Below, piece after piece: positions 1 to 38,341 of a stretch of 64,000 nt of DNA (position 1 is its first letter; every line of letters starts with the position of its first letter). The stretch spans positions 1 to 64,000 of the forward strand of contig NBIV01000245.1 in assembly GCA_003194525.1 (NCBI GenBank), written 5' to 3'. A program made the position numbers and the translations under genes. This DNA comes from Gracilariopsis chorda (Eukaryota; Rhodophyta; Florideophyceae; Gracilariales; Gracilariaceae). Under the pieces are notes generated by a model, which did not search any database, had not been told where the DNA came from, and saw only the letters and a list, made by a program, of their open reading frames with translations.

Positions 1-2298
1 GCGGCGCCGGGAGGCTTCGTCGTACGCCCCTCAAGCTACTCGATCCGCCTCTTGAATGAACACTATATGCCGGTGCTGAACTTCGTGGCGTTCCACTCAC
101 CATTTCAACCTCCCCGTCCTCCCCAGCTTGTTCGACATCCTGAACTGCAATTTCCATAGGCTCGGCCTCTTGCTGGACGGATGCAGCGGCTTCTGAGAGC
201 TCTACATCGCCCTGGCCTTCACCTTCAGCATTAACGCACAACTCGGGCATCCACTTCCCCAGCTTACCCTTGAACGCGCTCACAGCCCGCCCAATGGTTA
301 CTTCACGCAAATCCATACGGCACCTTCACGAACCTGTTGACTTGTTCAACGCCGAAAGCCTCGACTGTAGTCGTTCCGTTTGCAACCGCGGACATCGTAA
401 TTTCCTGTCGTAGAAATTCCTCCACATCAAGACTGAGGGCGCGAGCCCACAACTTAATTTCGCGGCTGAACGCAACCACCCGGCTGTAAAAGTACGACCG
501 CACCAGCTCAAACCCACCCCGAATGTCGGGGCCCTTCGGTCCGGTATAAAACTTGAGGCATTCCATCGCGAATGAGAAGTCACGAACATCCAGTTTCAGT
601 AGCATATCACTGGAAAACGTGTGTGAGCCCGATGGCGGCCGCTCCTCACACACCTTCTCAAACACCGGTAGAAGCGCAGGCACTCGCGCTAGTTTGAGAC
701 CCACATCAGCAAAACGACGAAGCTGACGTGTGTCTAACTTCCCGATCACCTCGCTCGACTTCAGCACACCCGCCAATTGCGAAGGGGTATTCTTCCCCCC
801 CACTCCGCGTTCCACTTGTACGGTTCCTACCATACTGACTGTGGAGTGTACGCGATCCGCAAAGCGCATCTTCAGCACCGCCGACGACGTATCATTCAAT
901 AATGTTCCAAGACGAAGAATCTCACTAGGTGTGAGGTCCTTACCATCTCGCCTCTTCCACATCAACACGCGCAATGCTTGCGTGATCTGCCGCCACAACT
1001 CCGATTTAGCCTGCCGACGCCGATGTATAATTCGACGGTGCCTGCCATCTATGAGTTCAACACGTCGAACAATACGCCCGTTCTCCACAAATCCGTCCTC
1101 CAAAGGACGCCCGTTGTGTCCACGGTAACACTCACATGCCAGACGAATAAAGCAAACCTTCCGATCAAACTGCTCTTCCAGTTGCTGCAAATGATTCTCA
1201 CTCACACCACGCGGACTGAAGTGAGGATCATCAATGAGCTCTAACTCAATTATATATTCCTGTACTTCATAATCACTGAAGTTGATACGCTCGTACACAA
1301 TGCAGGTGCCTATATCCACCAACGGTTCGACATCACCTTCGCTGTACAGAGTGCGTGGGTTCACACTACCATCCGGCGCTGCCGTCACCGCACAATTTCC
1401 ACCTCATCCATTTCACCCCTCTGGGTCGCGGTACCTCGCCCAGAACTACGGAGAGCAGTACCGGGAGACGCTAATGACATGCGCTCCAGCTGGGATTCGT
1501 CTTCGCCATCCCCTCCACGCACCGTTGCGGGTAACGAAAGCGGTGGCATCGGCGGTAGGGTCTTGGTGCCCGCTACACCAGGCGCACGGCGCGGCGTGCC
1601 TGCACGGCTCGTACTGCCACCCGCAACGCTAGAGTTTCCGGCAACCGGCCCACGTGAAGAGTGGTTCGCATCATTCCGACCATCCGCTCCAGAACTCGAC
1701 ACTGGTACTGTTTGTGAGGTGGGCACCATAGCGCGTAATGCGGAGCTTGGCGCTGTGCCAGACTTCGACAAGGAACGCGTCGCCGAACGATTCGACTGTA
1801 CCACAACGGTGGGGCCCGGAATCTTCATGCTTGAAGGTCGAGTACCCGGATGAACACTGCTTCTAACAATCGCTCTCGTGCCGCTAGCCCGCGGGGATGC
1901 CGACACAGAACGCCCGCCTGAAACAGTTCTCCTTGAACCGCTTGACCTCGGGATTTGACTTCTTAACCGCACAGAAGCTGACGCACTTCCACGCGGACGC
2001 ATCAACGTTAAATCCCAAGCCACAAACAGTCCACATGAATTTCAGACAGATGCTTCGGTGGGTCTTCGCCCCTTTGAAGGATAAGGGTACGCCGCACCCC
2101 GATCACCTGTTATGCGAACGCGGTGCACAACCACCAAATCCTCGTTTGGCTTCGCGATCTCCGAAAGCTCATGCCCATGGAGCGTACGGCTAAGCTTTCC
2201 ATCACGCGAGACAGAACAGCCTCGCCAGCAACCTTCCCATCCGCGAAGATCAACGTTACTTCTTCGCCGGCCCTGAACGAGTGTGCGTTTTTCGCCAT
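1..2298 (-). pseudogene. ParB-like domain protein, broken, runs off the left edge
   Basis: I start it at the ATG at 2298 (MAKNAHSFRAGEEVTLIFAD), a conserved-looking start facing the gene at 3702. A short N-terminal domain is followed by a long Ser/Arg/Pro-rich linker (about 1400-2020). A folded part (about 300-1390) follows, with a pattern like the ParB/sulfiredoxin fold: an NPR-like FSPRG, a helix, then VELIDGRHRRI in the place of the usual DGHHR box. An acidic tail continues to the window edge. The reading passes through an in-frame TGA near 2040 and frame changes near 2200, 1388 and 305, so this copy is probably dead unless introns explain them. In bacteria and phages ParB-like domains often travel with DNA methyltransferases, which fits the neighbour across the palindromic array. 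The fold call is pattern recognition only; the protein could be a different nucleic-acid-binding family. Confidence 0.4.
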
Positions 2299-2737: not shown

Positions 2738-3345
2738 GTGCGTACATGTACAATGGGACTATATCCCGTCGTACATGCGCACAGTGGACGCTGGCCATTT
2801 GCGCTCCATAAACATTACAATTTTTTAGCCTGCAGTGGTCGAGCCACAGGACTTTTTCCTGTCGTACATGCGCGCAGTGGTCGCTCGACCACTGGCGCTC
2901 CAAAAAATTACAATTTTTAGACTGCAGTGGTCGAGCGACCACCAACATGTACGACAGGAAAGTCCTGTCGTACATGCGCGCAGTGGTCGCTCGACCACTG
3001 GCGTTCCAAAAAATTTTTTTAGCCTGCAGTGGTCGAGCGACCACCACCGCCATGTACGACAGGAATCCTGTCGACATGCGCGCAGTGGTCGCTCGACCAC
3101 TGGCGCTCCAAAAATTACAATTTTTTAGCATGCAGTGGTCGAGCGACCACCACCGCCATGTACGACAGGAAAAAGTCCTGTCGTACATGCGCGCAGTGGT
3201 CGCTCGACCACTGGCGCTTCAAAAAATTACAATTTTTTAGCCTGCAGTGGTCGAGCGACCACCAACGCCATGTACGACAGGACAGTTGCCTGCGGTACAT
3301 AGCTGCATTGGTCGCTCGACCACTAGCGGCCGAAAAACCGCCTTA
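2738..3345. repeat. Tandem array of nested palindromes, about 107-bp unit
   Basis: About five to six units. Each has CCTGTCGTACATG, then a short palindrome GTGGTCGCTCGACCAC, an A/T core (AAAAAATTACAATTTTTT), the reverse palindrome GTGGTCGAGCGACCAC, and CATGTACGACAGG. The CCTGTCGTACATG starts fall near 2859, 2966, 3068, 3177 and 3289 (spacing 102-112). Each unit can fold end to end, and contains two 7-bp hairpins with 2-nt centres. The array lies between two divergent genes. The many open frames through it are by-products of the repeat. Function unknown: origin, recombination end, promoter array or insulator are all possible. Confidence 0.9.
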
Positions 3346-3636: not shown

Positions 3637-3644
3637 TATATAAA
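3637..3644 (+). promoter_or_regulatory. TATA box for the methyltransferase-SET gene
   Basis: TATATAAA 65 bp before the ATG at 3702, flanked by TCACG and CGTGA as a small inverted repeat. Spacing suits a core promoter with a short 5' leader. Confidence 0.55.
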
Positions 3645-5194
3645 CGTGAAGATCGTCGTACCAGGTGCTCATTCAACCGGCTGCGAAACGCAATTTTCAT
3701 AATGCCCAACTACACGAAGACCATCTTGGCTCTGTTGGAGCTACGCGATGAGTATGCGCGTGAACGAACGCCAGGCGATCGTCCTAGGAACGCCAAGTAC
3801 GCCACTCTCGTGGATCACGCGATTCGGGTGCGAAGGAACTCCACTGCTGCGCGCGCGAGCTTTGCTCCCAAGCAACCAACACCCGAACGTGTCTACTTTC
3901 GGGGATGAAGAACTACGCCGCGCGTTGTTGTCCACTTCGAATACCACTCGCAATGCGTTCCAACAAACGCACCAAATTGCGAAAGTGATCGACCAAACAG
4001 ACACCGAAAATGAATCAAGGGTGAAGGACTACTACCGCATATGCAACGCACGTGGTATAAACTTCACAATTCACTTCTTGCTCAGCGACTTGATCAAATC
4101 GCCCGTCACGGGCATTAATACGCGCAAGAACAAACGCACCGATGTCCCAACAGAACGCGCTTCGCGATTCGAGGTGTTGATTTACATGACGATGTTCGTA
4201 CAGTTGTCTCGCCAGCGCGTAGCTTTCTCTGGAAAGCGAAAGCGAGGACCACCCATTCCGGGTGCTCAGACGACGCCGAGCTCCCTTAGGAACTTCGACG
4301 CGTTCACCTGCAGCCGAGTTGCGTACGGTGTGCAACAGGTGACTCGCTCGTGGGATTGCTTTGCCACCTTTCTCGGATTCACTGACGTTGAGAGCATGGT
4401 GTACCCGTATATCATTTTCGATCCGGACAGCTTGGGGTTTGAAGTAATAGGCAATCGTGAAGATGGCTTCTCTCCACTCACGCAGCTTAAAACTCTCACA
4501 GGGACCTTAAATCATGCACCGACCCATCCCAAGTGGACTCCAAAGCGTTCGCACAATCGGACGAGGTGGATTCAAGCCTCCGCGCACTGAGTGAGGAGTT
4601 CCTTAGCGATGTGGTCAGCGTCGTCTCACATCCCCGACTGTACGAGGCGAACTTGCGCCCATGGCAGTTGCTGCTAGAGTTGCTTCCAGACGACAAGCGT
4701 AAGGCAATCGAACCGCAGCATTCCCGGCAGCGTTCGTTCCCCCAACGGTTCGACAAGCTGAGTGCGCAGCTTTGGAAACCCATTCGTGAGGTCAACACCC
4801 AACACCACAACGCGCACGCCAGTGCCAAATCTGCCACTACTGCTGCTGGGCGTCCCGCCACTTCCGCCATACCAGTGGACGTCATAGACTTGGTACAAGA
4901 ACCCACCAGCAGCAGTAGCAGCGGTGGAACCACGGGCAGCAACCCCAAAGCGCCCCACCCCCCTCCTCGCTAGGCCCGGACCCACAGAGTACAATGGAGC
5001 GCGATCTTCCTACAGCGAGGAGCAGGCGGACATCATTCCCCCAGACCAGCCGGCCGACGTACACGTGCTCAATGCGTTGGAATTGGTGCAGGAGCATATG
5101 ATGAAGCATTACGCAATGTATTGCTGCGGCTTTGACGACCTCGTGGATGTGCACAACACATTGCGTGCCCCGGACTCGTGCCATGCTCCCAGGC

Positions 5195-5940
5195 CCAGTT
5201 GGTATTGACAGACCCCCCTTACGCCATTCGCTCTATGCGTGGCAGGCCGAACAGCGACTACGACACCTCACCGTCGCCGACATGAAAGGGTTACAATAAC
5301 AATGAGTCGCTTGTTACGTGCTGGTGGCCACTTCGTCATTTTCTGCTCGCTTGAGCAGTTCCCGCGTTGGCGTAAGCTGTTGAACAGCGTTGATCGCAGG
5401 GAAGCCGATGGTACCGTTGCCCCAATGTTCCGCGTGGACCACTGCCCATTGCACATGATCCGTGCACCGGGTAACAACACCGTGTCGCCGGGCCGAGCAT
5501 CTGGATAGTTGATACCCATCACCCAATACGCGGTGCATGGCGTCAAAACAGGTCTCACTCGGGCGCAAGAGGACAAAATGGTGAACTCACCAACTTCAGT
5601 TACGTCCCGTTCCACGGTCACCGTCGTACAAGAACGTCATCGACCGTGGTTCCGGCCGTCGATGTGAATGAGCGTCTCATGTGTTCCCGCTACACAGACA
5701 GCGGAGATGTTGAAGCGTGAGGCTGTTCGTCCAGACAGAAGCCGATTACACTCAACATGAGCTCATTGCCAGGTTCTCCCAACCGTTTGATACGGTTCTT
5801 GACCTGTTTGGCGGCACCTTCTCGACAGCGCTTGCCTGCATGTCTTTTAAGGAAGGAGAAGCACGCAGATTCGTGGGTGCGAAGAAGGACGAAGCATGCT
5901 TCCACCACGCCAGACATCACGCACTGAAACACTTCTCAAG
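5195..5940 (+). other. DNA methyltransferase catalytic domain (order IV-TRD-I)
   Basis: Domain entry within the fusion gene. The catalytic DPPY is at 5211-5222 and the SAM-binding DLFGGT at 5801-5818, about 190 codons apart, with a variable target-recognition part between. The stretch before motif I (HELIARFSQPFDT) matches the usual helix leading into the SAM loop, and GAKKDEACFHHARHHAL matches the acidic strand end and following helix. Confidence 0.8.
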
Positions 5941-6279
5941 CTCATCGCCGAGAACGTTGCCAGCGTTACCGTCACGCAAGGTTTGGTGGATGCAGCCAAC
6001 GCTGTTCACAACTACTTTAAGGGATATCTGCGTCCCTCCCGGACTTGGGCAGCCGTGCCAAACTTCCCTCAATACTAAAACGCTACCGGAGCACATAGTT
6101 TTGTATTGTTCTCTAAATGGCGTGCACAGGACTTCGTCACCACCGGCCTTCACATGGACCTCTCCCAATGGCCGAGAAGTACCAAGAACTCTTCAATCTA
6201 ATGAGCGTGAACGAGCTCCCGCTCATGAGGCTTCAACGCTACGCCTTATTGTGGCTGAATCAACCATTTTGCACCCGTC

Positions 6280-6790
6280 TGCTGGGGCTGGCGTTTTTGC
6301 AAGCTGTTACGTTCGCCGAAGATGAGACAGTCTGCACCTTTTTACGGTACGTTGGTGTATCACGACATGTCCCAGCGAAACCGAAATCCACAACACATAT
6401 GGCTCCGGCTTGATGGGCGTTACCCCACAGGATTTCCGTACGTATTGTATGCAAGTGGACCTCAGGGCTCCGGACTTCACCTCCCTCATCGGACTGAACA
6501 AGGAAAAGAAAATACCAAGCGTTTGGATCTTGCCAGCTCCCTTTTGCGTAGGAGGACTCATCATGACCCAAGGTACCTCCAGTTGGATCCCGACGGGCAG
6601 CCCGTTCGTGATAGTTTCAAACCCAAACGAACGGCCAATGTCTACGTTGATCGTTCTGCGATATCTGCGCTTAAAACACGTAAGCACCTCGAGCCTTACC
6701 ACTCTGATAACAACCAGAGCTTCCCGCCGTATAGCACGCGAGAGCAACTCTTCATCGACTACGGTACTTCTTACGATTGGAACAATAATC
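6280..6790 (+). other. SET-like domain at the C-terminus of the methyltransferase gene
   Basis: GAGVFASCYV resembles the SET N-terminal GxGVFA signature, FYGTLVYHD the next strand, and EQLFIDYGTSYDW the GEELFxDYG end. SET domains methylate lysines, mostly on histones. The middle NHxC motif is not visible, so activity is doubtful even in an intact relative. The pieces fall in two frames. Confidence 0.5.
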
Positions 6791-6852
6791 TTGGTACCCC
6801 TTCGCCCCAAACACCTTCTTCGACTTCTACAAAACACAATAAAAACCCCTAA

Positions 6853-7594: not shown

Positions 7595-7960
7595 TAACAA
7601 CCTTGCCATTCACTCCATCGGATTCTTTGTCCTGTGCATCAACTGCGAATCTGCATCCCCTCGCGACGTGCCTTGCGCTATCATCTCCGAAAGGCGCACT
7701 TCCTCCCCCAGGAAGAGGCTCGCAAAGCATCCGACATCATGTGGTTCCCGCAGAAACGAAATGCTTAAGCAGAACAACCTCCCCCCGCTATTGAATTCGT
7801 ATGATCCGGAAGCGCCGAGCCAAAACGTGCTGTTCTGTGTCCACTAGCCGGGCTGCAAATATTGAACGGCTACCGCTGCGCGCAGTGCACCTCCTGCTAC
7901 ATTGACCTTCAGCGTCTCCATGAGCACATCACAAACCCACATTCCAATCACGCGCATTCG
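7595..7960 (+). other. DUF3505-like paired zinc-finger segment
   Basis: Two pieces: ILCPVHQLRI...RALRYHLRKAHF and NGYRCAQCTSCYIDLQRL followed by HEHITNPHSNHAH. The second has the Cys-x2-Cys ... His-x3-5-His spacing of a C2H2 finger. In fungal telomere-linked helicases, such a pair sits at the N-terminus. The two pieces are in different frames here. Confidence 0.6.
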
Positions 7961-9724
7961 TTTTCTTGGCTAATAGAACCTAACATCGAAGCAAAGCACC
8001 GTAAAAGTGCGAACCATATTCGGCGGCCCTTGCCTTCTGCTGTTTAAGGTTGAGCTCCGCCTCCCCCGTTGGCACCATAAGCAAACACCTTGAACTGCCT
8101 ATCCAAACGGTCAACACTCTGCAGCAACCCTTTCTACCCCAAAACCTCCAGTGCCAGCCCTTGCACCGATACTGCCACAGCCCATGCAACCCCCCAACCC
8201 GAACAAAAACTCCAGACACCGACAATACTGCAACCGGAACACAAAACCGAAGAAGCAATGAAAAACTTCTTCAAAAGCTTAAGCACCTCATATATCCAAA
8301 CCAATCATCTGCATCTGCAGCCACAAGCACAACAAAAACCCAACTTCTTCATTGCGTGTACCAAGCTAGACATCATACTCCAGTCTGTTTCTGTCAGCCT
8401 CAAGGACGCAACCATACTCACAAATCCAACATGTGCAAGCGACATCGATGCAATGGCTGCTATGACCAACGATGTTTTCATGTACCTCACCAAAGTTCCA
8501 TTTCTCATGTGCATCATTCCGCCATTCTTTTTCCAAAAGCTCAACCAACGCTCCGCCTCGCAGGACACGCTCAAAAGCTACGCCTCTGATATTGCCCGTC
8601 TCTTGCTATTCACAAAAAAAAGGCCACGAGCATGACGTCAACCTGGTTTCACAAGCGCAAAAACACTACGGCCTACCTCCAAAGCGTTACCCTAAAACCT
8701 AAACTCCTACACAGCGCGCTCACTGCCCACCTTCTGCAGACGCTCCCCCGTATGCATCTATGCATACACTCACTGTGCGCAAATTCATTGCGGCCGCTTC
8801 TGTGCTGGTTCACAACAGCCGAAGATGCCATCAACCAACACGACAAGCGCTACCACTATTCTAGTGCCAACGAGCTCACCCATTTACTCGCCGCTCTCCA
8901 ATACGGAGTCGCAGCATGCGCCATCCATCACGTGCATAACCTCACCAAGCAGCAATGAAAAACCCCTCATCAGCTTACTTTCGAGATGCAGCAAGTGGAA
9001 TTGTCGGTTGACGTGAAACCAAACAATGCTTTTTCTTTCATCCGCAAAACTCTCAGCTTTGCTATGAACATAGCCACTAAAGAAAGCATCAACGTATCGT
9101 TCGTGGACTGCGATATGCACTCGCACTGCGGCATCGTTGGCGACATTCACTTGGGTCTGCCCGCGCTCGGTTCTATCGTCAAAAAGCTCCATGCCGAAAT
9201 TGAAGACATCATCATTGATGATCTGCTATTGGGATCTCCATTCCCCCCTGCATTCACAAACCACATCCACGCTCTAAAAGACCAACCATCAAACAAAAAC
9301 CCCGGCTTCTCCTTCCTCCAACACCCGCACAATGGCTCTTTTCTACACACCTGCTTGCAGTATGTACTGCAATGCCTAAAGAACCCATCCATAAACACAT
9401 CGCACCATTCGCTCCAAGCTCCCTCCCCACCACCCAACGATACCCCCACAGTTCTTATTGCTGGTATCCACTTCTACACATCTGCTCTCACCCGCTGGCT
9501 CGCATGCGCACAAAAAGTCCAGGAGCGCTCCTCGTCGTTCTCCACTTTGCCTCCGGCTCCCCAGCTCGCGGAACCAAGATTGATTCGTATCGTCTGCACA
9601 ACGATTTGTTCCACCAACGCTGCCTCATACTTCTCGACTCTCAACCCGTTCTCATCACGCGTTACCTCAAAACTCAAAAACGCTAAAGGAGGCGCTCGCC
9701 CAACTCCACGCTTCCCAGATCCAA

Positions 9725-10135
9725 AGACAGCTGAACTCCTTCTCACTTACCTGACGCTCATTCGCCTGCTCGAAACCTGGTTCGTTTCGGCTATACACGT
9801 CGAAACCCATAAACAGTCACATTGGCGTATGTTGTTCTCAACCCACGGCATGCCCATGGACGCCCGAAACATTCGCCGAATCATCAGCTCCACTCTGCTC
9901 GACGCTGGGTTTAAACTCACCTTTGCCGACTACCGCAACTTCACAGTAGGAATCACCGCTCTCATTTCTTCCACTGCCGCAAACGACATTGACAAAAACG
10001 CTCTCCAAGGCCATCCTGGAAGAATTCATCTCCACCGCGCACAATCAAGCTGGGCACACGGCACACACTGCGGAGCTCATGTACGCACGCACCCCACACG
10101 ACGTCAGTGGAATGCAACAAACCGAACTCAGCAAG
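9725..10135 (+). other. Tyrosine-recombinase-like segment ahead of the helicase
   Basis: LLLTYLTLIRLLETWF, then FADYRNFTVGITAL (in the place of the HxLRHT box) and NQAGHTAHTAELMYAR, which reads like the C-terminal GHxSxxTTxxYxH box of tyrosine recombinases, with the His and the Tyr present. The last piece is in the next frame. Similar QAGHT..YAR strings occur, as I recall, before the helicase in fungal subtelomeric RecQ proteins. Confidence 0.5.
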
Positions 10136-10439
10136 TACAAAGAATGGTCCACCAAATGGCACTCGCTACTCAATTTGAGCAAACATGCCGCAAAGAAGCG
10201 CTCTTGCCGTGACACTCCTCAACATCAGAGCACCACCCCTCCCGCCAAGCGCCCCATTCCCGCATCACAACCCATCTCACCTCCGCACTGCCCTTACAAT
10301 CCGCCGAACGACGTGTTTGCACCCCTGGCCCGCTCATCCTCCCTACTCCACAGCCGCCCAACCCCATCCGAGCTCACAAGAGGTGGAGCGTCGCTTCATA
10401 CACCCCCACCGCTCAATTTTGAATACAGACTCGGCACGT

Positions 10440-11713
10440 TCCTCAACGCACTCCGACAAATGCTTGCCAATGGCTCCTCAGTGTTTAAATCACCTACGCA
10501 GTTTACCGTTACGGGGCCGTGTTTGAAAAGCGGGGAAACATGCTTATGCTCACTCTAACCGCCTCTTGAAACACATTGTCTGTACTGCTCCCGATGTACA
10601 TGGAGAAGGGCTCATATTCCTCCATCATTATCGTTTCTCTCAAAGCCCTCCTTACGGAGTACGAACAACGTGCGGCAGCCTTTCAGCTTCAGAGCAGCAC
10701 ATCCCTGCAAACCAATGGCGGCACGGAAACATTTGCGGATGTCTATATATTGTCAGTCGAAGTGCTTGACTCCGCCTCTTTCAACTCCCTGCTTCAACGC
10801 TTGTTGCACAAACAAAAACTGGCCCGCATCGTGTTGGATGAAGTGCATTTATATCTGTTATGGCAACACTTTCGCCCATCCCTTGCACACATCCACAATG
10901 CGCTTTCCATGGTACCCCCCCCATATACCCCGTGTACTGCTCAGTGCCACCGTGCCGCCCCGCGATCGTCCACTCCTGCTATCACAGCTTTCAATACCAA
11001 CAGCTTACCTGTATACCACTTCCACCGCCCGTAACAATATCCGCTTCTCCGTGTACGACGCTTCCCCAAGCGTAAAAGCCCCTCGAATTCGTACTGCCGC
11101 AGGTACCTATCAAAGCTTGTTCCAACATCTGCTTCAGACAGGCGTCCCGTACTTCCAACAACAAGTCTCAACATTGTTCACCGCAAGTACTGAATCCTTG
11201 GTCCGCATCATCCTATTCACACTCACACGCTCAGCTACAGAACAACTACACCGCGTCATTCAACAATACGTACAAGGAACATTATCTCACCAGTTCCCTT
11301 CCACATCTTTCATTTGCCTCTTCTATCATGCCCGCTTATCCGACCACGAAAAGGATAAAACACACGACGACTGGCTCCATCGCTTCTCCGTTCCGCCATC
11401 CGCCGCCGTAACCCAAACCGTTATTTTCATGACTTGCACTTCCGCCTTTGGAACAGGACTCGACACTCCAAACGTTCGGCTAGTGCTAATTTTTGGAGGA
11501 TGTGCCAGTTTGGCCGACCTTGCCCAGCAGGCCGGCAGAGCGGGTCGTGACGGCCGAAATGCGCGCTGCATCACTATGTACTCAAAGCCGTACTTCAAAA
11601 TGATACAAAATCTTCTTTGCTCTACAAACAACCAAAACCCCAACGACATCGCCAGTTCTTATGTCGACTCGCTTGCCACAGACCGCTGGAACCAATTGAA
11701 GACGTGGATGTAA
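10440..11713 (+). other. RecQ-type helicase core
   Basis: Visible motifs: RIVLDEVHLYL (DEVH box at 10837-10848), RVLLSATVPP (motif III), LVRIILFTLTRSATEQL (motif IV), MTCTSAFGTGLD (motif V) and QQAGRAGRDGR (motif VI). The expected P-loop before LSVLLPMYMEKG reads TAS, a stop, then NT, so the GKT lysine is gone. Loss of only this motif among well-kept others points to fairly recent decay. Confidence 0.9.
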
Positions 11714-12778: not shown

Positions 12779-12921
12779 TTTGTGGCCATAAGCTTCACAT
12801 GTTTCTATTCGTTAAGTATAAAAACCCCCCACACATCCTCACATGTTGAGAAACGCGCATGTGCGACCAAAACGAGAAACACCTTCCGCTTCCTTCTATT
12901 GTATTCTTATCTGTGTTACGC

Positions 12922-13090
12922 ATGTACGACAGGAAAAAGTCCTGTCGTACATTCACAGAGTGGTCGCTCGACCACTACCCTTCAAAACATTATTATTGTT
13001 TTGCTGCAGTGGTCGAGCGACCACTACGTTCATGTACGACAGGAAAACGTCCTGACGTACATCGCCGCGGGGGTCGAGCGACCCTAAAAC
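12922..13090. repeat. Second copy of the nested-palindrome array
   Basis: About one and a half units of the array at 2738-3345: CATGTACGACAGG, TCCTGTCGTACAT, GTGGTCGCTCGACCAC, an A/T core (ACATTATTATTGTT), GTGGTCGAGCGACCAC, and a diverged third palindrome (GGGTCGAGCGACCC). It begins about 145 bp after the helicase polyadenylation signal. The matching arrays bracket the methyltransferase and helicase genes. Confidence 0.85.
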
Positions 13091-14250
13091 ACCCCAAAGT
13101 CTCCGAGTTCAGTATTTCCATAGCCACGCCACTATCTTTTAAACATACGACAGCACTATTTCCTAATGCACCCCGCCTACGGCGGCGCACAACAAAGCAT
13201 TCCAATTAAAGACCGCTTTAGGACAAAGCGTGCTCTACATACCACTGCACACTTCTGCAGCACACAACGCCCACCCCCAAAAGTCGAAAAAAACCCCTTC
13301 ACAACAGCACATGCTATGCAAGACAATTCTGTTTCTGTTAACATTCTGCAACCCCTAAAACACCTAAAAACCCATAAAACACTAATAAAATAAAACCGAG
13401 GAATCTAAGTGCAACCCCCCAAAATGTCTAGAAGTAAAACCCCTAATACCAATACACCCCGTAGAAAACGCCGAGACCCGATCGCAAAATTGCCCATAAA
13501 AGCAAAACCTCTAAACAAAAATTGAATAGAACTTGCATTTCTTAAGTGTACGGCTAATCATAATCTTTTAAAACATTCAAACTCCCCTATCCGCAACACA
13601 AATCAATAAAACACACTAAAAAGAAAAACAACGTTTACAAAAACCCCTAAGACGTTCTATTCACATATTTCTACGTGTAGAGAACTAGGCCATATATACG
13701 ATTTTCTAGATCTTGCAATTTTCAGTATGCAAAGTCCAACTTTTAGTACTCTGACACATCCATAATCCTGGAAAGTACAGCTTACCAGAATGGAAGCGCC
13801 TAAAACGTTGCCGAGCGAACAAATATACAACCCTAACACCCTGTAGCGCTACACCTTTAAAACCACATCCCAGCTCCCAAAAACCCTTAATAGAGAAAAC
13901 GTTCTTATCAGTATTCAGCCCCCAACGGTACCTCGATATGAAATTTTGTACTTCTCCTTTTCTTCTCCAACTGCACCTAAAAACAACTAAAACCTCCTAA
14001 CATTGCCATATCCCTAAAATACAATAACCTAGAACGTTTCCTAATGCTAATATAATCCCCTAAACACCCTTACATTTAAAATCCCTAAACTTTAATATGA
14101 AGGTTCTTACAATACCCTAAAACCTTTCTTAATGCTAAGAACATCAAAGTATAAACCCCTAATTTTTAATACCAAGGCTCTTCATTCTTTCCCGGAAGCT
14201 CCCTAATAAAAGCCCGATTCGTCTCATTTGTTCCATGTTCATAAACATGC
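13091..14250. repeat. AT-rich gene-free DNA with degenerate CCCTAAA-like motifs
   Basis: No coding signature. The top strand is rich in CCCCTAAAAC, CCTAAAAACC, CCCCTAAT, CCCTAAAAC and CCCCTAAAC at irregular spacing (for example about 13350-13385, 13640, 14040-14090, 14110-14160). They resemble scattered, eroded telomere repeats of the CCCTAAA/CCCTAAAA type, which would fit the neighbouring telomere-linked helicase gene. Simple base bias could also produce some of them. Confidence 0.45.
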
Positions 14251-14279
14251 CCGCAATGCTTCGTTTGGGCATATATGAC

Positions 14280-15300
14280 CAGTACTACAAACCCCTAAAC
14301 ATTTGTCAAACATTTAAAAAAACGCATTTCTTGGTTTCCACAAATCTCCTCAAAACCAAGCGCTTTCGCCCTTTTGCACAATATGCGTTAAAATGCCCAC
14401 ATTGCATGGTTTTAGCAAATGTTGCAAAAACCAAGCACTTTTGCAGTTTAGTACAATGTGCCAAAAAAATCCACGCTTTGCTTGGTCTCTCACCTAAATG
14501 GCCTAATACCAAGCGCTTTCGAATATTTCTACAATGTGCCAAAAAAACCCCGCATTGCTAGGTTGCGTGAATGTGCCCAAAACCAAGCGCTTTCGATCAT
14601 TTGCACAATGTGCGTAAACATGCTCGAAATGCTTGCTTTGGGCAAATGTGTCCAAAACCAAGCGCTTTCGTACATTTGTACAATGTGCAAAATATTCACG
14701 TGTTGCTTGGTTTCTGCAAGGCAGTCCGAAACCAAGCGCTTTCCCACATTCTGCAAATGATCCAAAAAACATCCCACGCGCTTGGTCTGCGAAAAGCTGG
14801 CTAAAACCAAGCGCATGGAGCATGCGACCAAACCTTGCCAAACCAGCTCAGAAACCATGCTTCTAAAGCCTCCGACACGCACATATGCGCGCGTGCGCAC
14901 TTTCAGGACCTCCCTACAAGGCTCTGACAAATCATGGCTAAACCCAAGCGCTGGGGCACCCTACATTGGCGCGCTAAACCACTAAAGATGCGCTCAACTA
15001 CGCTACTTACACGACATGTACGCGGGACGTGCCATATATGCCTAAAACCAAGCGCAAACGCCGATGTCAAATCCTAATCTTTTGATGTATGCGCTTGGTT
15101 TTTGGCCAAACCAAGCACTCTATAATATTAAGCCCGGTTTTTTGAGCTCAAGCGTTTGTTTCATAACCGCCGCACAGCGCTTCATCATCCACTGAAGGCA
15201 TGAAAAACGTACATACAGCGATTCCACCACTCGTTCAACGTTTTGCGTCAGAACCAAGCGCTTGCCGACACCCCTCAAAACCAAGCGCAACCCCACACTT
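14280..15300. repeat. About 75-bp minisatellite carrying ACCAAGCGCTTTCG
   Basis: ACCAAGCGC recurs near 14356, 14430 (GCAC variant), 14508, 14583, 14658, 14731 and 14804, a period of 73-78 bp. Units also share CATTTGCACAATGTGC and a TGCTTGGTTT that is inverted relative to ACCAAGC, so each unit can fold. Single, more diverged copies continue to about 15290. Open frames through it are repeat by-products. Confidence 0.85.
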
Positions 15301-24064: not shown

Positions 24065-25904
24065 ACTAGTTTTTTAGCACGTGTCTGACGCACCGCTTGA
24101 AAGTACATGCTGAGAAATCCGAACTGTTTCTACGAGAGGCCCGTTTCTGCGGACTGCTCTTCTTCTTCTTCTTTATTTTGGGTTCAATATGTCTGATTAC
24201 GGCATATTGATAGAGGTTTTTTCTTTTTATGAGAAAAACCTCTCTCTCCTAAGAAAGGCTAACAACTTCTGTGGCCACTGGCGGACTATCTCCGCCAAAG
24301 TCTTACCTTTTCTCTCTGCTGCGGCAGGAAGCTCGCGTCTCCTAGAATCTGTCCGCTTAGTACAACGAAGCACATAGTTTTCAGCGCTGTTGGTAGCGGG
24401 CGTGTTACAGTCACATCGTGATGGTTTCCCTTCTATGTAACTTGCAACAGGGTGAAGCTTCGGCGTGTGTCCTACATAGATCTTGCGGACAGCTCATTTC
24501 CGTCGAAGGCATCCAGTACTCCCCCGATAACCTCACAACTCTACTGAACATGCACAAGCCAACGTACGCGTGGGACCTGCAGCAGCTACTCTGAGCATCC
24601 AATTGGATGCGTTCGTCAATCCCCTCCTACTCATCTTTCATTGCACTGTTACACAGCCTCCCCGAAACCATTTATAAGTGCAAGGGTTCTCGAACGAAGC
24701 GCGCCATTGCGAAAGTCCCCTTAACGAGCTACTGGGGAACAAAACATGATGATTCTTTCGAAACTACCAAGCAACAGTTAGCTCGTTCAACGAAACTCTC
24801 TCATTCAAAGAATGGGCACAAGTTATCCTTGTTCACTGATGCATCGGAGACCCATTGTTCTGCCATACCAACGCAAGTTCTGGACGGCCAGCTGAAACGA
24901 TGCATCGAAGATCAGGAACATGAACCGTTTTCTTTCCTCTCGGGTAGTTTTACCGGAGCAGTCGCTGGATGGAGTGTACCAGACGAGGAAGGCTTTGCCA
25001 TGGTGGAGTCTATGACCAACTTGGACTACCTGGTGACCGGAAGGACGGTTGCAATTTTTACCGACCACGCCAACCTTGTGTACCTCTTTGATCCGTACGG
25101 TCAAAGTTTTGGGATGTCAAAGCACACGGCAAGTAAACTGATGAGATGGGCATTGACACTGCGTGGTTTCAGATATGTGGTCGAACACCTGGCAGGAAAG
25201 CGCAACGTCTGGGCAGATATGTTGTCTCGGTGGGATGTGCAGCCGAGCAGAAAGTTATGCGCTGTCAAAATCACGTCTCTTCTACTCTCAACAATAACCC
25301 TTTCCCTGGACGCAAGGCTCGACTGGCCTATAAGGGAAGATATCCGTGAATCACAGAGTCCCGCTACGCAGAAGCCTCCTGGGCGATTCAAGGACCGAGA
25401 TGGAATAATAAAAGATGTGAAGGGGGTACTCTGGGTACCGAAACAGGACAAGCTGATGCAACTCAGGATCATGGTAGCCGGCCATGCTGGGCTGAGGGGA
25501 CACCGTGGATATAGGATGACGCAAACGACCATCGCGGCTCATTTCTGGTGGGACTCGGTGACGTCGGACGTTGAAGGATTCGTTAAATCTTGCCTTCATT
25601 GTTTGGCTACCGAAATCGGAGAGACCGTGCCGCGTCCGCTCGGCCGCTGCATGCTGACTGCCTTAACGAAGTGTTACATTTCGACTACTGCTACATGATG
25701 GACGGTGTCGGAGGTTCCAAGTATGTGCTCATATTGAAGGATGACTTTAGCAGATATGTTTGGCTCATTGCAATGGCTGAGGCTAATGCAGAAAATACCA
25801 CTAAGGCACTATTGTCGTGGTTCGCTTCGTTCGGTATCGTGCGCACTTGGGTTTCGGATTGCGGCTCACACTTCAAGAATGAAGTGGTCCGCTCTCTTTG
25901 AGAG
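24065..25904 (+). mobile_element. Gypsy C, 5' remaining part (reverse transcriptase to integrase)
   Basis: Ty3/gypsy sequence from the end of the reverse transcriptase (LKVHAEKSELFLREARFCG, about 24.1 kb) through RNase H (LSLFTDASETHCSAI, about 24.83 kb) to the integrase core (FRYVVEHLAGKRNVWADML at the RNase H-integrase border; WVSDCGSHFKNE at about 25.86 kb). The 5' LTR, gag and protease are gone. It is interrupted by a LINE fragment (24160-24483) and, at 25904, by the young gypsy E1. A handful of breaks; older than E1. Confidence 0.88.
24160..24483 (-). mobile_element. 5'-truncated LINE 3' end with target-site duplication
   Basis: On the minus strand it encodes the last ~70 codons of a LINE polyprotein: a CDCNTPATNSAENYVLRC zinc-like piece, RRRELPAAAERKG, IVRQWPQKLLAFL, RRERFFS and a stop. 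A short 3' UTR with AATAAA ends in (GAA)4. It is flanked by a 12-bp near-exact direct repeat TGCGGAC[T/A]GCTC (24148-24159 and 24484-24495) that belongs to gypsy C. The protein end matches the LINE relic in the palindrome spacer (RRRELPPLRERQG, IVRIWPEKL, RERFFS). Confidence 0.8.
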
Positions 25905-26349
25905 TGTTGATGTTAGCGAGTATCATTTCGAACGGCTGGATGTCCGAAGCGAAAGCAACTTGCAGAAGAAGCTTCACTACGTTACACAGAACCGTGAGCC
26001 TTGTACCGCAGGAAAGCTTAGGAAAAGAAAGGCTTGAAGTAGGCGTGCCCTGCTGTAGAGAGAGCAGCACGCCAACAGCGACTTGAGAACGTTTGAGCAA
26101 GAACCGTTCAAGCTAGACGTACACAAGAGAACGTATTCTTTATTGTATAGAACAGCTAGAAATCCTGTACTACACGGAGTAGCACAAAAATGCAGAGCTG
26201 TCGTACGAAGTATAAAAAGACCGATCACCCGCAGAAGAGCAGTGATCGGGGGCATCCTGGGCAGGAGATCCGGGGTCCTTGTGCCTGTTCCTGTTGCCCG
26301 CGCTACTGCACTCACGTCATCGCACTCTGCAACCCTGTTCTGATCAACA
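25905..26349 (+). repeat. 5' LTR of gypsy E1
   Basis: 445 bp, TGTTGA...TCAACA. TATA box TATAAAAAG at 26211-26219, immediately followed by an 8-bp hairpin (CCGATCAC 26221-26228, GTGATCGG 26242-26249). A second stem lies near 26042-26073 (GGCGTG...CACGCC). Confidence 0.93.
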
Positions 26350-29300
26350 AAGCGCTTTGATCTCTTTCTGCAAAGAGTAATAGAACGGTTTTGGAGCAAG
26401 ATGTCGTCGTGTGGGATAATCAACACGATCCAGGCCCCTACTCTCGAAGGAGCCTCGCAGCCCGAGCTCATCAAATTCGAAGTCGATTTCGCTGCGTACA
26501 ATGAGCGCATCGAAGATATCAATTCGGCAAGGCCCCCAAGTCAGCGAATCAAAGCAGCATCAATCAGGCAATGTATGAAGCCAAGACTTTTACACAGCCT
26601 TTGCATTCTTGGCCGCATTGGAAACGCTGGATCATCCGAAGAGGCCACGGACGAGGCCGTGAAGATCTGGTTTGACGCACGTTTAGCATCGACGATCTCG
26701 AACCTAAGCGACCGAGTGGAAGAGGCATTGGCCACCGTGAAGTACAAGCATATGCATCGGGACCCGTCTGGAGCCGCCGAAAACCTTGTGTTGGAAACAA
26801 TCGCTGCTTTGGATGAATACAATGCTTCCAGCATTATTACGGACCGCGATCAATGTAAGGAACTTATTGCCAAGCTGGTGAAGAAGCTGGAACCTGCTGA
26901 GCTGCGGCAGATTGTAACGGACCAGATGCGCCTCTGGAAAAAGGAGCAGAAAGGGGATATTAAGTTCTTTACAAATACGATATCCACACTTGCCGCACAG
27001 GTGCGCACCGTACAGTGCGCAATGGCAAAACTGAAGCGGAAAGATACGCACATGCGTGAGCAAGGTAGGCACGCAGGGAGAAATGAAGGACCGGATCGGA
27101 AGAGATTGCGAAGAACCCCGGGAAAGCCGCATAGTAACGACATCGAGAGAACTAAAGGAGACAAGAAGAAATATACAGAGATGTATGCCACCGGGGAATG
27201 GAAGAAGCCGTGTTTGAACGTAGAGAAGTGCTCAGGGATTCATCCAATCAGTAAATGTCCGGTGACTACGAAGGAAGAGAGACGTGAGCTACTGGACAAG
27301 CATTTCGGCAAGAAGAAAACGCTTAAGGTGAGAGCCGTTTCTCTTGGCCCAGCAAGCGAGTCGGAGCCAAATGCCGAGGAAGGAAGGTACAGAATCTTCC
27401 TGAACGACATCGAAGCAGCGGCATTGGGGGACTCTAGCGCAGACTATTCAACGATTCCGTCAGATTGTTTCGAAACTATTATAGCCAAGTATCCGGAACT
27501 CGTGGTCGAACAGCTCCCAATCCCACTATCCGTTGAGACTGCACTGTGTGCCAAGGACTTAGGACAGTCCGTTTTTGCTCGAAGGAGGGTGAGCCTGAAC
27601 CTGACGATAATACTGCCACAGACAGGATTGCCGGTGTGTATCAGAGGAGTTCAATTCCTGATTGCGGACTCGAAAATGCCGGAAATCCTGCTGGGCAGGC
27701 CTCTCCTGAAAGCCATGGGATTCGATTTCAACGCCCATTTGCAACGCATGGCACCTCTGATAGACGGTAAGTCGGAACAAGAACTGCGTGAAAGGACGTA
27801 CACACTGGCATCGACAAGCTATCACGGGGCGAGATACACTGATGGCGATGAAGACCCAATTGAATTGCCCGAGTGCCTCCATGCCGGTTTCGGACCTGAC
27901 ACAGTTGAAGAAATAGAAGCAGCGATCAGGTCGGCAGTCGGTGAGGCAAGGAAGAATGGCATGTCTGACACGGGCGCCAAAAGGCTGGAAGTCCTGCTGA
28001 AGAAGAATCGAAGCAGTTTCGGGATTCAATTGGGATCACAACCGCCAGCAGAAGTACGCCCATTGTCGATCAAACTCGCACCAAACGCCAAACCGTACCG
28101 CACACCACAGCGAAGATATTCCACAGCTCAGAGAGCGTTCATCTCCCACACCATCAAGCAATTAGAAAGAAATGGCGCCGTGTACAAGAACGATCAGGCA
28201 AGGTGGGCGTGCCCCGCACTGGCAGTACCGAAATCCGGAAAAGATAAACTACGGTTTACTGTTGACCTACGCGGAACAAATTCTCGGACTGTACCACTGC
28301 AGTCGGATATGCCTCACTTGGAATCAATGTTACAGGAATGCAGCGGAAGTAGATGTTTCGCCAATATCGATTTTACGCACGGATACTGGCAGCTGCCGCT
28401 CGATGAGATGTCCCAGGAACTGATGTCGATCCAGACACCGTTAGGAATTTACTCCCCAACCAGAACATTACAAGGAGGCACGGACTCTGGCAATCATTTC
28501 CAAGCCGTGACGAGGGAAAAATTTGAAGGAAGGGTCCAAAGGATGCTGCAATGGTTGGACGACTTTCTCATCCACGCCCAAAATGAAGAGCAGCTCCTAT
28601 CTGAACTAGAAGCATTCCTCCAAGTGTGTAGCGAGGTGGGTTTCAAATTAAATCCGAAGAAGTCTTGTTTCTATGCCACTGAAGTCAAGTTCTGCGGGAG
28701 AATCATTTCGGCCGAAGGTGTCCGCTTCGACCCTAGGAATTTCGAGGTCCTGTTGAGAATGAAAGCACCTTAGACTGCGGACGAGTTGCAGCAACTGCTG
28801 TGCGCAACCAATTGGCTGAGGAATTCTATACCGAACTACGCGCGCCTTATCGAACCGCTACACAACATGTTGGAAGAAGCATGCCGGAGAACGGGGAAAA
28901 GAACGAAGAAAGCGTTGAAGAAGGTGCGACTCAATTGGACTGCCGAGCATGCCGAAGCATTCGAACTGGTCAAGAAACAACTGGCACGAGCAACAACACT
29001 CTCGCTCCCGAAGGAAGGTTATAGGATTTGTCTCTTTACGGATGCATCCGAAACTCATTGGGCAGGAATTTTGACTCAGTCCCCTGAATCAGATAAGGAC
29101 AAGAAGATCGAGGACCAATTGCACGAGCCCCTCTGCTTCTTATCCGGTGCGTTTAATGGGTCCTCCGAGAGGTGGAGTGTACCGGAAAAGGAAGGGTACG
29201 CCATCGTAGAGTCCATGTGCAGGCTGGACTACCTCATCGTCGGGCGGACTGTATCAATATATACGGGTCACGCGAACCTCGTATATATTTACGACCCATA

Positions 29301-31054
29301 CGGTCGTAACCCTGGGGTACCTAGGCATGTTGCAAACAAACTCACAAGGTGGGCTCTGAAGTTGAACGCATTTCGATTCGTGATAGAACACGTGTCTGGG
29401 GAACGAAACTTTTGGGCTGATATGCTTACAAGATGGGCTGTCAAAGCCAAACGGACGGTAGAACCAACCGTCACGGGACGTATTCGAGCACTGATGACAG
29501 CACCAATCAACCCCGGCCTGGTCAAGGACTACGACTGGCCCACGATGCACGATATTATTACGTCACAGAATAGCAGCAGTGTGGCGCCTCCAGCCCAATA
29601 CACGAAGACAAACGGCATCATACGAACCCCGAAAGGTCAGATCTGGATTCCGGAAGGAGATGAGAAACTACAGTTCAGAATCATGATTGCCGCTCACACT
29701 GGGAAAGGAGGACATCGAGCAACAGATCCCACATTAGATACCGTAGCAGCGCAATTTTGGTGGAAAGACCTAAAGAAACACATTAGTGCCTTCACTAGAT
29801 CTTATCTGCACTGCCTTGCTACTGAGTCTGGAAGGATGGTACCGAGACCATTGGGTCACACCATGCACGCCAACAAGCCAAACGAGTTGATACATTTCGA
29901 CTATTGCTACATGGGAAAGGAAGAGCACGGTGAAATATACTCCCTTATTGTGAAGGATGACCTGTCTGGCTATGTGTGGATGAGAGCAGTAGAAGAAGCT
30001 GACGCGGAAACGACTGCAGATGTACTCATGGATTGGTTCGCGGCTTTTGGTGTCTCAAGATCATGGGTTTCAGATCAAGGCAGTCATTTCAAAAACAAGC
30101 TCGTGAAGCTACTCGCACAGAAGCTGAAGGCAAGCCATCATTTCACTCTTCCCTACTGCCCATGGACCAACTGTTCAGTTGAGATAGTCTGCAGAGAGTT
30201 ACTTAGGACATGTCGAGCAATGCTTTCAGAATTCCAACTTCCCCAGTCAGCCTGGCCGTCCGTACTGCCACTGGTCCAATCAGCTCTGAACAGCGCACCG
30301 GCAAGAAGACTGAACGGAAGTTGCCCTCTCACAGTGTTCACAGGGCTGCCACAGGACTCCCCATTGACTGCTATTCTACGAGGGAAAGCAGAAGTGAAAT
30401 CTGTACAGGATATAAAGGTATCTCAATCAACGGCTCTGAAGAACTTAGACAAGTTACATCAGGCCTTACAGAACATCCATCGCGTATGCGCGGAACGATC
30501 AGGGAAACAGCGCAAAGCTTCGGTCGACGCGCATAATCGTCGTACTGGTGTGAAACCCGTCAATTTCTGCAAAGGAGATTTTGTATTGAAGGCGGTAATG
30601 CAGAGAAATATCCGGGCAAAGACCTGCCTGAGGTGGCAAGGACCTTTTCGCGTCACGGAATGCCGCCAACAGTATATTTTCGAAGTCGAAGATCTGGCTA
30701 CTGGAAAATAGGAACTCGTACACGGAAGGACGCTGAAAATTTTCCAAAACAAGGATTTCGAAGTTACAGAGGAGCTACGAGAACATCTGGCATATCAGAA
30801 GAACGAACTGTTGGTAATCGAGGACTTCCAGGATATTCGCCTACGAAAGAGAAATATCGAACTATTAGTGAAGTGGACAGGTTTCGAGAACAATGAGGCT
30901 GACTGGGTTGATTTAAAATCATTACAACAGGATGTGCCAGATTTAGTACAAGAATATCTCACGGAAACAAAGAAAGGAGGAACACGCAGACAACAAAATG
31001 TAATCGCATCCATTAACCAAAAATAACCAACCACGGAGGCTGGTTATGGGGGAC

Positions 31055-31499
31055 TATTGATGTTAGCGAGTATCATTTCGAACGGCTGGATGTCCGAAGC
31101 GAAAGCAACTTGCAGAAGAAGCTTCACTACGTTACACAGAACCGTGAGCCTTGTACCGCAGGAAAGCTTAGGAAAAGAAAGGCTTGAAGTAGGCGTGCCC
31201 TGCTGTAGAGAGAGCAGCACGCCAACAGCGACGTGAGAACGTTTGAGCAAGAACCGTTCAAGCTAGACGTACACAAGAGAACGTATTCTTTATTGTATAG
31301 AACAGCTAGAAATTCTGTACTACACGGAGTAGCACAAAAATGCAGAGCTGTCGTACGAAGTATAAAAAGACCGATCACCCGCAGAAGAGCAGTGATCGGG
31401 GGCATCCTGGGCAGGAGATCCGGGGTCCTTGTGCCTGTTCCTGTTGCCCGCGCTACTGCACTCACGTCATCGCACTCTGCAACCCTGTTCTGATCAACA
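31055..31499 (+). repeat. 3' LTR of gypsy E1
   Basis: 445 bp, about 99.3% identical to the 5' LTR by eye. TATA box at 31361-31369, and the same hairpin at 31371-31399. Confidence 0.93.
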
Positions 31500-32403
31500 G
31501 AGAGCAGACTAGAGGCTCTCACCACTTCACGCTAGCCTACTGCCAGTGGAGCAACGGTACAGTTGAAGTCGTACGTAGAGAGCTGTTACGCGCCACTAGA
31601 CCGTTGTTATCAAATCTTCAACTACCGCACAAGTGCTGGCCTGATATTGTCCTTGTTGTGCAATCGATCCTGAACTCTACTCTGGCAGAAAGGCTGGGTA
31701 GACGTTGTGCATTCACCTTATTTACAGGGCTACTGCAAGACACTCCATTGCAGTCGGTTAGAGTGAAGCTTGGGAAAACGACTATTGTGAAAACCGTCGA
31801 AGATCTTCGCGCAAGAAAGCTGATAAGGATGCAAGAAATCCAACGTGCAGTTCACAATATGCATAGGGATTTCGCCAATCGTTTCTCACAGAAGCGACGC
31901 AAGGACGTGCAGAGACATAACGCGCGCGTACCAAAGTTCGTGCGGTTAATTTCGCGGAAGGCGATTTTGTTCTGCGGGGAATCTTTCGAAAGGAACGAGG
32001 TGGAAAGCCCGCAGTGAGATGGCGAGGTCCGTACCGTGTGGTGGCCTCCCAGTCGGAATACACCTTCACCATAGAAGACCTCCTTACAGAAGAGCCGAGC
32101 AAGGTACATGGTCGCCGTCTAAAATTCTTTCGCAACAAAGATTTCAACGTCACGGAAAAGGTGCATAACCATCTCGCATACCAGCAAAATGCGTTTCTCG
32201 TGGTGCAAAACTTCGACAATATACGCAGCGTTCAAGGACATGTCGAGTTGTTAACGAACTGGCGGGGATTCGCAGAGGTAGAAAGCTCATGGGTTTCGCT
32301 TGCTTTGCTGCGCGAGGACGTACCTGAGTTGGTCAAGGATTACCTCAACGATATCCAGAAGTCAGGCTATCGTCGGCAGAGATCGTTAGCGTTCTCTGTG
32401 TAA
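31500..32403 (+). mobile_element. Gypsy C, 3' remaining part (integrase end and chromodomain)
   Basis: Continues the element interrupted at 25904: integrase tail (HHFTLAYCQWSNGTVEVV) and a chromodomain-like end (VELLTNWRGFAEVESSW) to the stop near 32403. The reading is broken in a few places. The first 5 bp are the E1 target duplication. Confidence 0.88.
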
Positions 32404-38255: not shown

Positions 38256-38341
38256 CGGCTATCTACAGGCGACGCGGCCTCGCGGATATCTACAGGCGAC
38301 GTGGCCTCGCGGCTATCTACAGGCAACGCGGCCTCGCGGCT
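38256..38341. repeat. 27-bp tandem repeat, three copies (left arm)
   Basis: Unit GCGGCTATCTACAGGCGACG plus CGGCCTC, three copies with single-base variants. The length is a multiple of three, and in one frame it reads LSTGDAASR three times. Confidence 0.8.

What the first reader, a model, noticed from the sequence alone, without database searches (positions are those of the whole stretch)
3702..6852. Beta-class DNA methyltransferase joined to a SET-like domain in a eukaryote
Seen: DPPY at 5211-5222 lies before DLFGGT at 5801-5818, the beta order, and SET-like strings (GAGVFA, YGTLVYHD, EQLFIDYG) follow within the same transcription unit. Known: beta-class enzymes are mainly bacterial N6-adenine or N4-cytosine methyltransferases; SET domains methylate lysines. 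Inference: an intact relative would mark both DNA and chromatin, perhaps of the element that carries it.
Basis: partly seen in the sequence, partly recalled or inferred. Interest (0 to 1): 0.85.

Follow-up and report, generated by a model that had tools for sequence, protein, structure and literature searches.

The report
Decayed eukaryotic DNA methyltransferase with SET-like tail
A broken gene in a repeat-rich eukaryotic sequence once encoded a bacterial-type DNA methyltransferase and perhaps, right behind it, a protein-methylating SET-like domain; such a pairing would be unusual, but this copy is dead and no intact relative was found.

Summary
The methyltransferase half is real: a frameshift-tolerant scan with nine phage-type methyltransferases puts its best place on both strands of the 64 kb at 5068-5954 (94.9 bits, next 36.3; 0 of 300 shuffles), and a read-through passes Pfam N6_N4_Mtase (1.5e-7) in beta order. 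The SET half is likelier than not, but unproven. Pfam SET and solved structures give nothing usable. Scans with seven solved eukaryotic SET chains, or 60 pooled SETs, rank this region first at three settings, mostly through its last 20-54 codons; a first bacterial profile does so at one of three settings over 6284-6765; a second does not. A TATA-like box (3637), an ATG (3702) and the first AATAAA (6838) fit one transcription unit, but the frame is broken many times, so this copy cannot work. A decayed OrsD/helicase gene shares the repeat-bracketed stretch. No relative with both halves was found; the collections searched are not of eukaryotes. Partly supported; new variant of a known kind.

The parts
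3637..3644 (+). TATATAAA, TATA-like box upstream of the gene
   Evidence: motif scan; sequence; function inferred
3702..4986 (+). N-terminal part of the broken gene from ATG 3702, no recognised domain; holds VDVIDLV at 4875-4895, which resembles a SUMO-interacting motif (recalled, no test)
   Evidence: Pfam gave only chance-level hits on the frames scanned; structure prediction of 3904-4509 gave pLDDT 31, useless
5068..5954 (+). decayed beta-class DNA amino-methyltransferase domain: DPPY 5211-5222, then DLFGGT 5801-5818
   Evidence: frameshift-tolerant scan, best place on both strands of the window; Pfam N6_N4_Mtase 1.5e-7 on a read-through with X, 5.2e-4 and below cut-off on the single open frame 5714-6322; PHROG 67 3.3e-13
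6284..6765 (+). decayed SET-like domain: GAGVFA, EDETVCTF/YGTLV, then REQLFIDYG
   Evidence: frameshift-tolerant scans: 6284-6765 first in the window with profile 1 at cost 3 and with the pooled profile at cost 3; 6605-6765 or 6707-6765 first with the eukaryotic profile at costs 3-5 and with the pooled one at costs 4-5; not first with profile 2; Pfam SET silent
6838..6852 (+). AATAAA and the last stop codon of the broken gene
2744..3337 (.). tandem array of a quasi-palindromic unit of about 106-112 bases, left of the gene
12871..13092 (.). same repeat unit, right of the helicase gene; the two arrays bracket the gene pair
7805..11710 (+). broken neighbour gene: OrsD-like zinc finger (7805-8044), DEAD (10570-11031) and Helicase_C (10559-11710) pieces
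   Evidence: Pfam: OrsD 4.2e-4 and DEAD 4.4e-5, both below their cut-offs; Helicase_C 2.2e-10, above it

Best explanation
3702-6852 is the decayed remnant of one eukaryotic gene. Its ancestor encoded a protein with an unassigned N-terminal region, a beta-class DNA amino-methyltransferase of bacterial or phage origin, and a C-terminal SET-like domain. The likely mechanism of the intact ancestor is that the permuted methyltransferase domain bound AdoMet at the DLFGGT motif and methylated an amino group in DNA with DPPY. N6-adenine is the more likely target because DPPY is the commoner form in N6-adenine enzymes (recalled). The SET-like domain then methylated lysine or, since no NHSC motif is seen, served as a protein contact. 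The gene shares a stretch bracketed by a complex repeat with a decayed OrsD/helicase gene, so it was perhaps cargo of a mobile element. Shown: the methyltransferase homology, the motif order, the broken frames and the shared flanking repeats. Likelier than not: the SET homology. Inferred: a single protein, its activity, its bacterial or phage origin and its mobile nature.
For: Methyltransferase: 94.9 bits at 5068-5954 against 36.3 for the next place, 0/300 shuffles and 0/300 column permutations; Pfam above its cut-off on the read-through with X, while two wrong-frame versions of the same segments gave no family; PHROG 67 3.3e-13; motif I residues D261/G265 (DLFGGT) invariant with seven phage enzymes and one viral-contig enzyme. 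SET: the seven-chain eukaryotic profile puts its best place on both strands inside this region at three costs (28.2 bits at 6605-6765; 24.4 and 23.4 at 6707-6765; shuffles as good 0, 0 and 1 of 500, permutations 0, 0 and 0 of 500); the pool of 60 likewise (26.8 at 6284-6765; 23.1 and 22.1 at 6707-6765; shuffles 0, 0, 0 and permutations 2, 0, 1 of 500). Profile 1 gives 31.3 bits over 6284-6765, first in the window at cost 3; in the region, at costs 2, 3, 4 and 5, shuffles as good are 0, 0, 1 and 0 of 1000 and permutations 0 of 1000 each. SET domains decayed in the computer score medians of 27.0 (ATXR5) to 51.9 (G9a) with profile 1, so 31.3 is in range. One unit: TATA-like box 3637, ATG 3702, first AATAAA 6838. 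Decay rather than generally poor sequence: two gypsy-type elements in the same window have long frames with few stops.
Against: Pfam SET gave nothing on the read-through or on three of its pieces nor on the open frames; NCBIfam gave nothing and solved structures nothing SET-like. hhalign against a 16-SET alignment gave 5.7% probability on ten residues, P 0.0067; the methyltransferase read-through used as control got P 0.019. Profile 2 (30 SETs of another phylum) scored 20.9 bits at cost 3, not first in the window, with 11/500 shuffles and 25/500 permutations as good, and no better at costs 4 and 5. Profile 1 does not rank the region first at costs 5 and 7, and over the whole window 2 of 150 permuted profiles reached 31.3 (0 of 60 block shuffles). 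With the eukaryotic profile the N-terminal piece alone scores 13.4-17.4, about what shuffles give (means 13.0-15.6). The middle of the SET alignment runs through frames with stops, the C-terminal piece itself jumps frame, and no NHSC motif is read naturally. For the methyltransferase, NCBIfam (0.01, far under its cut-off) and solved structures (DpnA, 0.033) are weak. A stop at 6076-6078 lies between the two halves in one frame.
Confidence: 0.55

Rival explanations
1. The methyltransferase is real but the tail is not a SET domain: the three strings are chance resemblances in a decayed, unrelated C-terminal region.
For: Pfam, NCBIfam and PDB do not see SET and hhalign barely does; one independent SET profile does not rank the region first; with the eukaryotic profile only the C-terminal piece stands out.
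Against: Eukaryotic and pooled profiles put their best place of both strands in this region at each of three costs; profile 1 does so at one of three over the whole length; SET-start and SET-end anchors lie in the right order.
Confidence: 0.3
2. Two neighbouring genes, methyltransferase then SET, not one fused protein; the stop at 6076-6078 followed by an ATG at 6117 would be the boundary.
For: The stop, and an ATG directly after a stop in another frame, are in the sequence.
Against: Only 38 bases separate them, with no AATAAA between 3400 and 6838; so close a pair on one strand would be odd for separate eukaryotic transcription units (general knowledge).
Confidence: 0.15
3. The gene is intact in the organism and the frame changes are indel errors of the assembly.
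For: The gene and its broken neighbour lie near the left end of the window; if that is near a contig end, low coverage could leave indels (general knowledge; where the contig ends is not known).
Against: Two gypsy-type elements in the same window have long frames with few stops, and a 366-aa frame at 306-1403 on the minus strand in the same stretch is open. Other gypsy-type copies in the window are broken too, so decay is common here.
Confidence: 0.12

Closest known systems
N4CMT of bdelloid rotifers (Rodriguez et al. 2022, PMC8885841; abstract and passages read)
   Same: A bacterial-type permuted N6_N4_Mtase (PF01555) in a eukaryote, joined to a chromatin-related C-terminal domain.
   Different: N4CMT carries a chromodomain, makes 4mC and is intact; here the tail is SET-like, the gene is decayed and its target base unknown. 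The paper says that the rotifer enzyme has no eukaryotic homologs.
Phage DNA methyltransferases (PHROG 67; loci L038-L044)
   Same: Motif order and profile match; 35-40% identity over 52-60 residues in the 20 rows listed of 66 phage records.
   Different: Free-standing genes in the annotation of the seven loci fetched; 18-24% identity overall to the eight aligned enzymes.
MetB and MTA1c, fungal 6mA writers (review PMC13297926, passages read)
   Same: DNA N6-adenine writers in eukaryotes, MetB of bacterial origin.
   Different: PF02384 and MT-A70 families, not PF01555; no SET domain in either in the passages read.
Retrotransposons carrying DNMTs (de Mendoza et al. 2018, PMC5890265; title and start of abstract in the search listing)
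   Same: A mobile element bearing its own DNA methyltransferase.
   Different: C5-cytosine enzymes in retrotransposons; here an amino-methyltransferase in a unit not proven mobile.

Membership tests
Beta-class DNA amino-methyltransferase (N6_N4_Mtase, PF01555) | catalytic motif IV (DPPY) before AdoMet motif I | tested here: met
   DPPY 5211-5222, DLFGGT 5801-5818, both inside one profile match
Beta-class DNA amino-methyltransferase (N6_N4_Mtase, PF01555) | match above the Pfam cut-off | tested here: met
   32.1 bits against 26.7, only on a read-through with X at the frame changes; the single open frame reaches 20.5
Beta-class DNA amino-methyltransferase (N6_N4_Mtase, PF01555) | intact open frame | tested here: not met
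   six frame changes and one further in-frame stop in my reading of the domain
Beta-class DNA amino-methyltransferase (N6_N4_Mtase, PF01555) | methylation of adenine N6 or cytosine N4 in DNA | not testable with these tools
   needs an enzyme assay on an intact relative
SET domain (PF00856) | match above the Pfam cut-off | tested here: not met
   no hit with the limit at E 10 on the read-through or three pieces
SET domain (PF00856) | profile similarity beyond chance, allowing for frame changes | tested here: inconclusive
   yes with eukaryotic and pooled profiles, mostly by the C-terminal piece; partly with profile 1; weak with profile 2 and by hhalign
SET domain (PF00856) | GxG start and ELxxDY end motifs | tested here: met
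   GAGVFA and EQLFIDYG aligned to the two ends of profile 1
SET domain (PF00856) | NHSC-type motif | tested here: not met
   only reached through a forced path across frames with stops
N4CMT | C-terminal chromodomain | tested here: not met
   no chromodomain in the ten frames scanned of the gene or in the read-throughs
N4CMT | N4-cytosine specificity | not testable with these tools
   needs an enzyme assay
Mobile element cargo | terminal repeats around the unit | tested here: inconclusive
   shared repeat arrays at 2744-3337 and 12871-13092, but each unit is itself quasi-palindromic and no target-site duplication was sought
Mobile element cargo | transposase or recombinase in the unit | tested here: inconclusive
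   Pfam on selected open frames of the unit found, beside the methyltransferase, OrsD and helicase pieces and chance-level hits; not every frame was scanned

The most novel reading that the evidence does not exclude
Intact relatives exist and are two-handed chromatin writers, one polypeptide that methylates DNA on an amino group and lysines through a SET domain, carried by a mobile element with an OrsD/helicase gene and used to mark the element's own copies.
Probability: 0.2. Interest if true: 0.8.

Novelty: new variant of a known kind. Interest (0 to 1): 0.5.

Why it matters
The rotifer paper reports its N6_N4_Mtase, joined to a chromodomain, as without eukaryotic homologs. A separate eukaryotic methyltransferase of this class joined to a SET-like domain would suggest that eukaryotes or their mobile elements have more than once coupled captured bacterial DNA methyltransferases to chromatin. 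It would make directly testable whether 4mC or 6mA outside the MT-A70 route marks such elements.

Tried and rejected
Relatives: five viral-contig scans for the gene's own pieces or motifs found no relative, and one matched only an unrelated frame of 44 residues. The DLFGGTFST pattern found two methyltransferases in viral contigs (L001, L002). In genome contigs it found five contigs: L003 and L007 show the motif in frames of 59 and 47 residues, and the other three gave nothing in my motif translation. Phages gave only distant methyltransferase matches (66 records; 34 records). Plasmids gave no match for the SET read-through, and phages none for the minus-strand frame 306-1403. No collection of eukaryotic genomes was available.

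SET by ordinary means (Pfam, NCBIfam, PDB, hhalign) gave nothing usable. A fold prediction of the N-terminal frame was useless. Folding the SET-like part was not attempted: it needs several frame changes, and by its description the tool takes at most one such word. Papers: of the held library only the rotifer paper names both N6_N4_Mtase and a SET domain, and none names both PF01555 and PF00856. The titles and abstract starts listed show no report of such a fusion. Besides listings I read only passages of PMC8885841, PMC12695648 and PMC13297926.

Rows dropped: of the 30 SET loci L008-L037, 23 were used in profile 1. L013, L021, L031, L033, L034, L035 and L037 were left out as long, partial or odd frames, by eye. 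All 30 of L046-L075 were used in profile 2. The hhalign alignment held 15 of the 23 plus EZH2.

It ranks 6605-6765 or 6707-6765 first, and the N-terminal piece is near chance there. I therefore lowered SET homology from about 70% to about 65%, the best explanation from 0.60 to 0.55, and raised the no-SET rival from 0.25 to 0.30.

Full report
What is in the sequence. The strings named in the finding are at the stated places. Between the ATG at 3702 and the stop ending at 6852 there is no continuous frame. My reading of the methyltransferase part moves between frames six times and contains a further stop in frame; the SET-like part moves five times. A TATATAAA lies at 3637 and the first AATAAA between 3400 and 8000 at 6838, so the layout fits one transcription unit, without proof.

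The methyltransferase. The single open frame 5714-6322 hits Pfam N6_N4_Mtase at 5.2e-4, below its cut-off. With the pieces joined by X the match is 1.5e-7 and 32.1 bits (cut-off 26.7) in two stretches, and two wrong-frame versions of the same segments match no family. PHROG 67 (DNA methyltransferase) gives 3.3e-13. NCBIfam gives only 0.01, far under the cut-off, and the best solved structure is DpnA at 0.033. To avoid the bias of choosing frames by eye, I wrote a profile scan that allows frame changes at a cost. With a profile of nine methyltransferases (seven annotated phage loci, plus L001 and L002 from viral contigs) the best place on both strands is 5068-5954, 94.9 bits at cost 3, and 5178-5932, 69.1 bits at cost 5. 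The next places reach 36.3 and 26.8, and 0 of 300 dinucleotide shuffles and 0 of 300 column-permuted profiles reach the observed score at either cost. The motif order is that of the permuted beta class.

The SET-like part. Ordinary searches are silent: Pfam, NCBIfam and solved structures (none, one unrelated hit at 1.7). hhalign against 16 SETs aligns only TREQLFIDYG, with 5.7% probability and P 0.0067; the methyltransferase read-through used as a control got P 0.019, and the two wrong-frame controls 0.33 and 0.68. The frameshift-tolerant scan was run with five profiles. (1) 23 SETs from the class of a gammaproteobacterial MAG plus human EZH2: 6284-6765 is the best place in the window at cost 3 (31.3 bits, next 25.0). 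At cost 5 it splits into two pieces ranking second and third on the plus strand, behind 24664-24813, and at cost 7 only the C-terminal piece stays among the six places listed. In the region, shuffles as good were 0, 0, 1 and 0 of 1000 at costs 2 to 5 and permuted profiles 0 of 1000 each; over the whole window at cost 3, 2 of 150 permuted profiles and 0 of 60 block shuffles reached 31.3. (2) 30 SETs from the phylum of a Planctomyces MAG: 20.9 bits at cost 3, not first in the window, 11 of 500 shuffles and 25 of 500 permutations as good; similar at costs 4 and 5. (3) Sets 1 and 2 together: 25.2 bits at cost 3, first on the plus strand, second to 26.1 on the minus strand, with 1 of 500 shuffles and 2 of 500 permutations as good; at cost 5 first on both strands. 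(4) Seven solved eukaryotic chains: first on both strands at costs 3, 4 and 5 with 28.2, 24.4 and 23.4 bits, but at 6605-6765 and then 6707-6765; the N-terminal piece alone scores 17.4, 15.4 and 13.4, near the shuffle means of 15.6, 13.5 and 13.0. (5) All 60 together: first at costs 3, 4 and 5, at 6284-6765 (26.8) and then 6707-6765 (23.1, 22.1). As a sensitivity check, SET domains of four solved proteins decayed in the computer (10% substitutions, five indels) scored medians of 51.9 (G9a), 43.8 (SETD8), 32.8 (SETD7) and 27.0 (ATXR5) with profile 1. The observed score is in the range of a decayed, divergent SET. The alignment is convincing at its two ends and poor in the middle, it jumps frame within the C-terminal piece, and no NHSC motif is read naturally. 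I put the SET homology at about 65%.

Surroundings. Downstream, in the same direction, lie pieces of a broken gene with an OrsD-like zinc finger (4.2e-4, below cut-off), DEAD (4.4e-5, below cut-off) and Helicase_C (2.2e-10) matches. The two genes lie between arrays of one quasi-palindromic repeat unit at 2744-3337 and 12871-13092; a self-comparison of the window showed no further copy longer than 150 bases. This suggests, but does not prove, one mobile unit. The rest of the window holds gypsy-type elements (by domain order; a chromodomain above the Pfam cut-off in the one frame scanned), a DDE_Tnp_4 frame and a DHHC gene, so the source is a eukaryote, species unknown. Two gypsy-type elements have long frames interrupted by few stops: 809 and 645 aa in one frame with a single stop between, and 299 and 875 aa likewise; others in the window are more broken. 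That argues that the broken frames here are decay and not general sequencing error, although local assembly error is not excluded.

Relatives. The collections on hand hold viruses, prokaryotes, phages and plasmids. None gave a relative with both halves.

Comparison. The nearest known thing is N4CMT of bdelloid rotifers, a captured bacterial N6_N4_Mtase joined to a chromodomain (PMC8885841, abstract and passages). The design is alike, a DNA writer tied to a chromatin domain, but the tail and the state of the gene differ, so I do not file it there. Fungal 6mA writers in a 2026 review belong to other families (PMC13297926, passages). The main text of a 2025 survey of eukaryotic 6mA does not contain PF01555 (PMC12695648, term search). 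Searches of the held papers listed no report of an N6_N4_Mtase-SET fusion; papers outside that library were not searched.

Verdict. Methyltransferase: settled. SET-like tail: likelier than not. Fusion and self-marking: open. The copy here is dead unless the frame changes are assembly errors.

Noticed in passing
36132-42916 and 44535-51320: Inverted repeat with arms of about 6.8 kb, 99.7% identical, about 1.6 kb apart: a large palindrome, real or an assembly product.
   Followed up: no
25907-31505: Nearly intact gypsy-type element with 449-base direct terminal repeats 99.1% identical, pointing to a recent insertion.
   Followed up: partly
54963-60586: A second long gypsy-type element with a chromodomain; terminal repeats 94.2% identical.
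   Followed up: partly
306-1403, minus strand: Open frame of 366 aa containing VELIDGRHRR, which resembles ParB-like proteins by eye only; Pfam, PHROGs, NCBIfam and phages gave nothing usable. One phage locus fetched here has a gene annotated ParB-like beside its methyltransferase.
   Followed up: partly
8959-10555: Between the OrsD-like and helicase pieces, strings such as ADYRNFTVG and QAGHTAHTAELMY recall tyrosine recombinases by eye; Pfam gave nothing on the two frames scanned.
   Followed up: no
14243-14814: Tandem array of a 74-75 base unit.
   Followed up: no
L001, L002: Two IMG/VR contigs carry methyltransferases with DPPD in place of DPPY and DLFGGTFTT.
   Followed up: no
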